Part shown: one piece after another, positions 24,360 through 25,503 of the stretch
Numbering within the stretch: position 1 is the stretch's first letter
Layout of the letters: each line of letters begins with the position of its first letter
Assembly (NCBI GenBank): GCA_004362315.1
Contig: SNWL01000003.1
Span: 806,001 to 870,000, forward strand
Direction: 5' to 3'
Length of the DNA stretch: 64,000 bases
From: Mycobacterium sp. BK086
Lineage (GTDB): Bacteria; Actinomycetota; Actinomycetes; Mycobacteriales; Mycobacteriaceae
Made by a program: the position numbers and the translations under genes
Notes under the pieces: generated by a model
Seen by the model: the letters and a program-made list of their open reading frames with translations, nothing else
The model's database searches: none
Told to the model about the DNA's origin: nothing

Positions 24360-25037
24360 TCAGCCGAGGTGAGCTTGCAGCAGCCACGCCGGCATCGACT
24401 TGCGGCCGTTCGGCTCGTCGCGCAGATCGCCGCCGGCGAATTCGACCATCGTCGCCATCGCCTCAGGGACGTTCGCGTGGATGCGCGCGGGACGGATCTC
24501 GTCGATCACCCAGTACGGCTCCACAGCGGCACGCAGTTCGTCGGCGGTCACCGGATGAGCGGGGCCATTGGCCGGCATGGTTCCGGCGTCGAAGACCAGC
24601 ACGAAATACGACGCTCCCGGCGCGGCCGCTCGCACGATCGAGCGTTGATAGCCGTCGCGCAGCTCGACAGGCATCGAGTGGAACAGTGTCGAGTCGACGA
24701 TGGTGCCGAATCTGCCGTCGTAGCCGCCGAAGTCGCTGATGTCGGCGACGTCGAAGCTGGCCGTGGTCACCCCGCGCTTGGCGGCCTCGGCGCGGGCGAG
24801 CTCGATGGCGGTCGGCGAGAGGTCCAGGCCGACAGTGGTGAAGCCGCGCTCGGCGAGGAACAGCGAGACCGCCGCTTCCCCGCAGCCGGCGTCGAGGACG
24901 TCGCCGTGGAACTTGCCTTGCTCGATGAGCGCGGCGATCTCGGGCTGCGGCTCGTCGATGCTCCACGGGGGCCGGAAGCCCTCGAACTCCGGGGCCGAGC
25001 GCTGGTATGCGGAATCGAAGAGATCTTCAGTGGTCAT
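24360..25037 (-). CDS. SAM-dependent methyltransferase, Rv0560c-like
   Basis: The 225-residue class I methyltransferase shows motif I VLDAGCGEAA, motif II VGLDLSPTAIELAR and SFDVADI, then TIVDSTLFHSMP and PGASYFVLVFD. From memory these stretches are strikingly close to M. tuberculosis Rv0560c, a salicylate-inducible enzyme that can N-methylate certain xenobiotics and is repressed by the MarR regulator Rv2887. The ATG at 25037 has GGAGG before it. The frame could be extended to 25085, but that extension is palindromic operator DNA and is probably not translated. It is divergent from the MarR gene by 46 bases. Confidence 0.88.
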   Translation of the reverse strand: MTTEDLFDSAYQRSAPEFEGFRPPWSIDEPQPEIAALIEQGKFHGDVLDAGCGEAAVSLFLAERGFTTVGLDLSPTAIELARAEAAKRGVTTASFDVADISDFGGYDGRFGTIVDSTLFHSMPVELRDGYQRSIVRAAAPGASYFVLVFDAGTMPANGPAHPVTADELRAAVEPYWVIDEIRPARIHANVPEAMATMVEFAGGDLRDEPNGRKSMPAWLLQAHLG

Positions 25038-25053
25038 ACCTCCACGAATATCA

Positions 25054-25084
25054 ATCAAGTTGATATATGTCAATATCATTGACA
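25054..25084. promoter_or_regulatory. overlapping MarR-type palindromes between methyltransferase and MarR genes
   Basis: Two perfect inverted repeats lie in the 46-base divergent spacer: ATCAA-G-TTGAT at 25054-25064 and TGTCAAT-ATC-ATTGACA at 25068-25084. TTGA/TCAA half-sites between them are also symmetric. The second repeat ends on the first base of the MarR ATG. The AT-rich island is unlike the surrounding DNA. The likely use is binding of the MarR dimer to repress both genes. Confidence 0.75.
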
Positions 25085-25503
25085 TGAGTGCCGCCCACGA
25101 CGAGCCGCTGGGCTATCTGCTGTACCGGGTGGCCTCGGCCCTGCGCGCCGAAGTGACGGCAACGGCGCTCGAACCCGTGGGGCTGTCGTTCCCGCAGTAC
25201 ATCTGCATGCGGATCCTGTCCAAGTTCCCCGCCCGCTCCAATGCCGAACTGGCCCGCGACACCGGCGTCTCGCCGCAGGCGATGAACATGGTGCTGCGCA
25301 GCCTCGAAGAGCGCGCACTGGTGACCCGCCCGGCCAGCGTGGATTCGGGCCGCTCCCTGCCGGCGAAGCTCACCCGCGCGGGAATCGACCTGCTGGCGCG
25401 CACCGATGCCGGGGTGCGCGCGTCGGAACAGTCATTGATGGCCGATCTGAGCGACGAACAACGGCGGGAATTCCGCAGGATTCTCGCCACCCTGGGCGCC
25501 TGA
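25084..25503 (+). CDS. MarR-family transcriptional regulator (Rv2887 type)
   Basis: The 139-residue protein is a winged-helix dimer typical of MarR. An N-terminal dimerisation helix (GYLLYRVASALRAEV) is followed by the recognition helices (SNAELARDTGVSPQAMNMVLRSLEERALV) and the wing (DSGRSLPAKLTRAG). Its size and its place between pyrH and amiC equal those of Rv2887, a repressor of rv0560c in M. tuberculosis. The ATG at 25084 overlaps the palindrome upstream, so binding should block its own expression too. The last 11 codons contain a sequence repeated 1 kb downstream. Confidence 0.9.
   Translation: MSAAHDEPLGYLLYRVASALRAEVTATALEPVGLSFPQYICMRILSKFPARSNAELARDTGVSPQAMNMVLRSLEERALVTRPASVDSGRSLPAKLTRAGIDLLARTDAGVRASEQSLMADLSDEQRREFRRILATLGA
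25459..25490 (+). repeat. 32-base direct repeat, copy 1 (partner at 26510-26541)
   Basis: The stretch encoding QRREFRRILAT at the end of the MarR gene matches 26510-26541 in 28 of 32 positions, and all four differences are A/G transitions. Copy 1 is a weak imperfect hairpin, while copy 2 is part of a perfect 17-base-pair hairpin. The NmrA-type gene lies exactly between the two copies. Confidence 0.7.

What the first reader, a model, noticed from the sequence alone, without database searches (positions are those of the whole stretch)
24360..25503. Rv0560c-like methyltransferase and Rv2887-like MarR gene are divergent neighbours over paired palindromes
In M. tuberculosis the MarR regulator Rv2887 represses rv0560c although the two genes are far apart. 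Here the likely orthologues are head-to-head, with perfect repeats TGTCAAT-ATC-ATTGACA and ATCAA-G-TTGAT in the 46-base spacer. This looks like the ancestral arrangement, and it gives the operator directly. The frame of the methyltransferase runs on through the operator, so annotated N-termini in this family may include non-translated operator DNA.
Basis: partly seen in the sequence, partly recalled or inferred. Interest (0 to 1): 0.7.

Follow-up and report, generated by a model that had tools for sequence, protein, structure and literature searches.

The report
Methyltransferase–MarR pair sharing one operator
In this mycobacterium a methyltransferase gene and its likely MarR repressor gene stand head to head over one shared double operator, and the same DNA signature is found at the separated genes of other mycobacteria, which suggests that a published binding site for the tuberculosis homologue is not the main one.

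Summary
MTase (24360-25037, -) and MarR (25084-25503, +) are divergent over 46 bp; their best solved relatives are Rv0560c (69%) and Rv2887 (56%). 116 of 148 genomes of the genus hold the 36-bp double site. At least 68 have the divergent pair; 43 have both genes apart. In these 43 the MarR start codon still overlaps the last base of one site; 52 distinct separated MTase promoters keep both sites.
Best reading: an autoregulated MarR switch. Site 1 holds the MarR extended -10 and start codon and the MTase -35; site 2 fills the MTase -35/-10 spacer; both messages are probably leaderless. This agrees with the 2012 promoter mutations in M. tuberculosis and disagrees with the 2017 footprint, which resembles the coding end of the upstream reductase gene and is absent from the 73 linked promoters examined.
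"Ancestral arrangement" is plausible, not proven; the window MTase lies outside the Rv0560c subgroup. The N-terminus warning is right but already printed for Rv0560c. No binding or transcript data.

The parts
24360..25037 (-). SAM-dependent methyltransferase gene (225 aa), Rv0560c-like; predicted leaderless start ATG at 25037
   Evidence: Best solved match Rv0560c 7bgg, E 2.7e-93, 69% identity; Pfam Methyltransf_25/31, TPMT
25084..25503 (+). MarR-family repressor gene (139 aa), counterpart of Rv2887; ATG overlaps the operator by one base
   Evidence: Best solved match Rv2887 5hsm, E 6.3e-40, 56% identity; Pfam MarR; synteny
25068..25084 (.). Operator site 1, TGTCAA-N5-TTGACA; holds the predicted MarR extended -10 (TGTCAATAT, 25068-25076), the first base of the MarR ATG, and on the - strand the MTase -35 TTGACA (25073-25068)
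   Evidence: present in 73 linked and 52 separated MTase loci and at 43 of 43 separated MarR starts
25049..25065 (.). Operator site 2, TATCAA-N5-TTGATA; fills most of the MTase -35/-10 spacer and supplies the first two bases of the -10
25045..25073 (-). Predicted MTase promoter TTGACA-N17-TATTCG with TGA before the -10; ATG 7 nt after the -10 hexamer
   Evidence: Sequence; same spacing as the mutated M. tuberculosis promoter (PMC3317779 section 11); the generic scan did not call it
25038..25083 (.). 46-bp spacer between the two start codons

Best explanation
This is an autoregulated MarR switch, probably responsive to a salicylate-type ligand. Two MarR dimers would sit on two tandem 17-bp palindromes, 19 bp apart, that overlap the core promoters of both divergent genes: site 1 contains the MarR extended -10 (TGTCAANAT), ends in the MarR start codon, and is also the MTase -35; site 2 lies between the MTase -35 and -10. 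Bound repressor would shut both promoters; a small aromatic ligand would release it, and the methyltransferase is made. Both messages probably begin at or within a base or two of the start codon (leaderless). In other mycobacteria the MTase sits elsewhere with both sites, while the MarR gene has one site. Shown here: genes, sites, conservation, separation pattern, start-codon overlap. Inferred: binding, repression, autoregulation, ligand, transcript starts, substrate.
For: Double site at up to 3 mismatches in 116 of 148 genomes of the genus; 1 hit in the reversed-pattern control over the 148. 125 of 135 distinct MTase loci have it (73 linked, 52 separated); mean information 1.78 bits at the named positions against 0.48 in the N5 gaps (the sites were picked by the named positions, which raises the first figure). 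MarR start codon overlaps the last base of site 1, in frame, in 72 of 73 linked loci and in 43 of 43 separated genomes (best MarR match of each), whose best site has 0 (27), 1 (14) or 2 (2) mismatches against 4.1 on average in shuffles. AT inside the first N5: linked 72 of 73, MarR-only 43 of 43, MTase-only 0 of 52, as expected if it belongs to the MarR promoter. Operator to MTase ATG is 10 or 11 nt in 115 of 125, in more than one reading register; the start taken was the most upstream in-frame ATG/GTG after the operator. Published M. tuberculosis promoter: TTGACA, 17 bp, TATAta with TGA in front; mutations at TATATC and just downstream of the -35 raise basal activity (PMC3317779 sections 11, 13). 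Rv2887 overexpression represses Rv0560c (PMC4301838, passages). Of the residues named for DNA (Arg57, Thr62, Gln64, Arg81, Arg89) and salicylate hydrogen bonds (Arg42, Asp114), 5 of 7 are identical; Thr62 is Ser and Asp114 is Glu (by eye).
Against: No binding, transcript or induction data. The published Rv2887 footprint is another, GC-rich sequence. The generic sigma-70 scan finds no promoter here. 32 of 148 genomes lack the double site. The M. tuberculosis promoter itself was not in what I reached (396 sampled genomes, best 80% identical; best 80 loci), so its match rests on motifs quoted in a paper. 9 of 135 distinct MTase loci (7 of them Nocardia) have neither double site nor linkage, and one linked Nocardia locus (L158) lacks a full double site.
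Confidence: 0.82

Rival explanations
1. Rv2887-type MarR proteins recognise GC-rich DNA by indirect readout at the published 27-bp site, and the AT-rich palindromes belong to another repressor or only to the sigma factor.
For: DNase footprint and a 2.5-A crystal complex on GC-rich DNA (PMC5526998 sections 5, 9); the authors suggest a second repressor.
Against: The 27-mer, read on the other strand, has up to 8 mismatches upstream of the operator in 26 of 52 separated MTase loci and in 0 of 73 linked loci, where the best is 11; in L182 it falls on the end of the upstream reductase ORF (coordinates). It has 6 mismatches of 12 to the operator half-sites. The hydrogen bonds described in the complex go to phosphates. 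The palindrome is at the MarR start codon even where no MTase is near (43 of 43). Two-fold symmetry across free N5 gaps is more than a sigma factor needs (inference).
Confidence: 0.1
2. The separated arrangement is the older one, and the MTase was brought to the MarR gene several times.
For: The tree has no safe root; in the MarR tree some linked pairs (M. kyorinense group) nest with separated MarR genes; the pair is rare outside the genus, so transfers probably occur.
Against: Each arrival would have to land at the same place, in the same orientation and at a similar distance, on a shared site. Linked pairs occur in both halves of the MTase tree and in three other genera; the separated MTases read lie beside two unrelated kinds of gene (FAD-dependent reductase-like; leucine carboxyl methyltransferase family) and are not one clade.
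Confidence: 0.2
3. The palindromes are a chance or low-complexity feature of an AT-rich spacer.
For: The spacer is plainly richer in A and T than the genes beside it.
Against:: usually one double site per genome, controls near zero, half-sites fixed while gaps are free.
Confidence: 0.01

Closest known systems
Rv2887 - Rv0560c regulon of M. tuberculosis (PMC3317779, PMC4301838, PMC5526998)
   Same: MarR repressor with most of the same key residues and an Rv0560c-type methyltransferase; promoter with TTGACA, 17 bp, extended -10 and a palindrome over the -35
   Different: Genes far apart there, head to head here; window MTase lies outside the Rv0560c subgroup; published footprint is elsewhere; MarR autoregulation and leaderless starts were not seen in the parts of these papers that I read
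Classical divergent MarR-target pairs (recalled, no call)
   Same: Regulator and target share one spacer; the repressor binds palindromes over both promoters
   Different: Here the MarR start codon overlaps the operator, and the two sites are tandem with centres 19 bp apart
Heterocyclic toxin methyltransferase Rv0560c, PDB 7bgg, 7ndm, 7nmk, 7noy (names as deposited)
   Same: 69% identity over residues 7-225
   Different: Substrate of the window enzyme is untested; it lacks the extra N-terminal residues of the deposited chain

Membership tests
Rv2887-type MarR repressor | Closest solved relative is Rv2887, far ahead of other MarR proteins | tested here: met
   139 against 37 bits; 56% identity
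Rv2887-type MarR repressor | Same chromosomal block as the MarR of separated genomes that groups with Rv2887 | tested here: met
   Window: S2, EF-Ts, amidase, pyrH, frr. Separated MarR loci L251-L261: rpsB and tsf in 11 of 11, amidase in 10 of 11, pyrH inside the 8-kb stretch in 3 of 11. Position of Rv2887 itself is recalled
Rv2887-type MarR repressor | Residues for DNA (Arg57, Thr62, Gln64, Arg81, Arg89) and salicylate (Arg42, Asp114) | tested here: inconclusive
   5 of 7 identical, Thr62 to Ser and Asp114 to Glu (read by eye; roles)
Rv2887-type MarR repressor | Binds the MTase promoter and lets go with salicylate | not testable with these tools
   needs binding assays
Rv0560c-type methyltransferase | Class I SAM methyltransferase closest to Rv0560c among solved chains | tested here: met
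   315 bits, next 108; 69% identity
Rv0560c orthologue (one to one) | Groups with Rv0560c in the tree | tested here: not met
   Rv0560c is in a 15-row set of separated genes (100/94) inside a 30-row set (97/97); the window gene is outside both, across a 96/93 branch
Rv0560c orthologue (one to one) | Lies beside the reductase gene (Rv0561c place) | tested here: not met
   The own reductase homologue is at C6:390372; the only MTase match listed on C6 is at 505657
Salicylate-inducible Rv0560c promoter type | TTGACA, 17 bp, extended -10, palindrome over the -35 | tested here: met
   Window 25073-25045 against PMC3317779 sections 11 and 13; inducibility not testable

The most novel reading that the evidence does not exclude
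The operator of the whole Rv2887 family, M. tuberculosis included, is the double AT-rich palindrome TRTCAA-N5-TTGAYA read by base-specific contacts, with MarR autoregulated through a site that overlaps its own start codon. The published protein-DNA complex was then made on non-operator DNA near the end of the neighbouring coding sequence, and the idea of Rv2887 as a global, indirect-readout regulator would fall: it would be a switch with one or two targets.
Probability: 0.6. Interest if true: 0.62.

Novelty: new variant of a known kind. Interest (0 to 1): 0.5.

Why it matters
By the papers seen, the Rv2887/Rv0560c pair decides whether mycobacteria methylate and so inactivate certain antibacterial compounds. 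An operator conserved over a hundred genomes says where the repressor should bind, gives a clean target-site model for future structures, predicts that the repressor controls itself, and suggests that a footprint and a crystal complex in print describe a secondary site. It also gives a simple rule (operator edge plus 10-11 nt) for the true start of this methyltransferase family.

Tried and rejected
Wrong frame: and protein 1 used MarR one base off (25083-25499) and found nothing of use; corrected.

Looking for M. tuberculosis itself: 396 sampled genomes of the genus with the solved Rv0560c sequence, best 80% identity; the one genome-contig scan returned its best 80 loci, none titled M. tuberculosis. 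I stopped there, so its promoter was compared only through motifs quoted in print.

The 27-mer footprint was first sought in one orientation only and looked unconserved; the other orientation showed the match upstream of separated MTases.

Coding reading of the upstream frame: rejected, because the frame is closed in 82 of 125 loci and the ATG keeps its distance, not its register. The GGAGG one base before the MTase ATG (25043-25039, - strand) was considered as a ribosome site and set aside: it is too close, and many of the promoters printed lack it.

A single clade of separated MTases: rejected. Simple joint inheritance of the pair: only weakly supported (rho 0.24, 0 of 60 label shuffles as high). 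The place of the M. kyorinense group of linked MTases differs between the quick tree (with the window half) and the careful one (with the Rv0560c half, outside its 30-row set).

Sigma-70 scan: no promoter called; the -10 here lacks the T at position 6 that the scan demands.

Papers: a DOI recalled for Warrier et al. 2016 and two identifiers of Winglee et al. 2015 are not held and were not read; one of them may already map the operator.

Full report
Observation. The window is part of a 6.93-Mb genome. The closest named relative among the loci returned is Mycolicibacterium sphagni (MTase 95%, MarR 89%; records very near the window may be left out there). The MTase (24360-25037, -) and MarR (25084-25503, +) genes are head to head over 46 bp. 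MTase: best solved relative Rv0560c, 315 bits, 69% identity. MarR: best solved relative Rv2887, 139 bits against 37 for the next, 56% identity. Repeat 2 exists, but the conserved register is 25049-25065, so both sites have one form, TRTCAA-N5-TTGAYA, with centres 19 bp apart.

Surroundings. On one side are UMP kinase pyrH, frr, a phosphatidate cytidylyltransferase-like gene and rlmN; on the other an NmrA-like gene, a primary-amine oxidase and an amino-acid transporter-like gene, FtsX and ABC proteins, an amidase, a luciferase-like gene, EF-Ts and ribosomal protein S2. In 11 of the 43 genomes where MTase and MarR are apart I fetched 8 kb around MarR: rpsB and tsf are there in 11 of 11, the amidase in 10 of 11, and pyrH in 3 of 11, the other stretches ending without it. 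Rv2887 falls among these MarR genes in the tree (98/98 set of 18 rows, 11 separated and 6 linked). That Rv2887 itself lies between pyrH and amiC/tsf is recalled.

Conservation. In 148 genomes of the genus (an even draw) 116 hold the 36-bp double site at up to 3 mismatches, mostly once per genome; 32 do not; the reversed control gave 1 hit in all. 124 of 148 have a MarR match at E 1e-10. By places typed in from the cut lists, 68 genomes have the divergent pair (45-102 bp between the aligned ends) and 43 have both genes apart; 3 have only the MTase and 3 only the MarR in these lists. Of 148 fetched MTase loci, 135 have distinct promoter stretches; 125 have the double site (73 linked, 52 apart) and 10 do not: 9 apart, 7 of them Nocardia, and one linked, L158. 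Outside the genus the linked pair with the double site is seen in Nocardia (L148, L168; L157 with 3 mismatches), Amycolatopsis (L169, L186, L187) and Streptomyces (L188), but in an order-level draw of 298 genomes only 33 have the double site and only one of them is outside the genus.

Anatomy. The MTase ATG follows site 2 by 10 or 11 nt in 115 of 125 loci, in more than one reading register; the frame upstream is closed by a stop in 82 of 125. So the position is tied to the promoter and not to the frame, which is what a leaderless start would give: in the window, TTGACA, 17 bp, TATTCG, 7 nt, ATG. The MarR start codon overlaps the last base of site 1 in 72 of 73 linked loci (66 ATG, 6 GTG), in frame with an open MarR gene in each of the 72; the exception is L044. 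In the 43 genomes with the genes apart, the best MarR match keeps one such site, with the start codon at its edge in 43 of 43 (41 ATG, 2 GTG); the frame reads into the MarR motif LGY in 40 and into its variant LGA in the other 3. Inside the first N5 an AT pair is kept in 72 of 73 linked and 43 of 43 MarR-only sites, and in 0 of 52 MTase-only sites: this fits an extended -10, TGTCAANAT, for MarR, 7 nt before its ATG. These counts are of related genomes and are not independent events.

Relation to M. tuberculosis. Schuessler and Parish 2012 (PMC3317779; outline with abstract and sections 11, 13, 14, 15 read) placed the Rv0560c promoter downstream of the annotated start: TTGACA, 17 bp, TATAta, TGA in front, a palindrome over the -35, and mutations at TATATC and next to the -35 that raise basal activity; they also suggested that the start is misannotated. 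The motifs they quote fit the consensus TTGACATATATCAGNNNNNTTGATATA of the Rv0560c-like loci (the 30 loci returned as best relatives all have the double site at 0-1 mismatch). Minch et al. 2015 (PMC4301838, passages) report that Rv2887 overexpression represses Rv0560c and that five factors bind near its start. Gao et al. 2017 (PMC5526998; outline with abstract, sections 3, 5, 7, 9, 14, other passages by search) report a GC-rich 27-bp footprint and a complex whose described hydrogen bonds go to phosphates. That 27-mer, on the other strand, matches DNA 48-143 bp upstream of the operator in separated genomes in the 22 best rows printed (26 of 52 at up to 8 mismatches) and in none of 73 linked promoters (best 11). 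In L182 the match falls on the end of an upstream FAD-dependent reductase-like ORF of 408 aa. I infer that it is not the conserved operator; it may still be a real secondary site.

Evolution. In a careful tree of 78 rows, linked and separated MTases both occur in each half; Rv0560c is in a set of separated genes (15 rows, 100/94) inside a 30-row set (97/97), the window gene in the other half (96/93). The separated genes as one clade are rejected, p-AU 4.9e-05. G117, G379 and G186 carry a linked and a separated copy; in G117 and G379 the separated copy is inside the Rv0560c set and the linked one outside it, in G186 both are inside. Separated MTases stand beside a reductase-like gene (L162, L177, L182; its GGR_cat match is below the cut-off) or a leucine carboxyl methyltransferase-family gene (L118, L123). 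The simplest story is a linked pair from which MTase copies with the double site left more than once, while MarR stayed; but the root is not fixed, the two proteins' distances correlate only weakly, and transfer between genera is likely.

Function. Arg42 and the DNA-contacting Arg57, Gln64, Arg81 and Arg89 of Rv2887 are kept in the window MarR; Thr62 is Ser and Asp114 is Glu (by eye, roles). So release by a salicylate-like ligand is likely, not shown. The MTase substrate is unknown; by the deposited names of its relatives a small heterocycle is likely.

Literature. Searches for Rv2887 or Rv0560c with each other and with operator, divergent, leaderless, palindrom and translational start listed no paper whose title or shown abstract describes the divergent pair, the double operator or MarR autoregulation; of the papers listed I read parts of five (PMC3317779, PMC5526998, PMC4301838; passages of PMC9598822 and PMC12893000), and two key papers were not held.

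Noticed in passing
L251-L261, L265-L296 (MarR starts): The start codon of the regulator gene shares its first base with the last base of a conserved palindrome in 43 of 43 separated genomes: a compact case of likely autoregulation at a leaderless start.
   Followed up: yes
G075:C1:1704754-1704808 and G115:C1:1920440-1920494: Two 3.3-Mb single-contig genomes of the genus have overlapping, weaker double sites on both strands (2-3 mismatches) although their best MTase matches are weak; what gene they serve was not looked at.
   Followed up: no
G039:C1:4260849-4261300: Double operator and MarR are present, but no MTase place next to them was listed (cut list): perhaps a lost or decayed MTase.
   Followed up: no
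window 23980-24333 (-): A small gene without Pfam match lies between pyrH and the MTase; among the named loci tblastn found it only in L109-L114 and L155.
   Followed up: partly
PDB 7bgg chain A: The deposited Rv0560c chain aligns from its residue 29 to residue 7 of the window MTase, so it carries about 22 further N-terminal residues (any tag included) that may come from promoter DNA.
   Followed up: partly
L002 (G000:C2:533962-534606): Own-genome paralogue at 57% identity; the only double site of this genome is at the window pair.
   Followed up: partly
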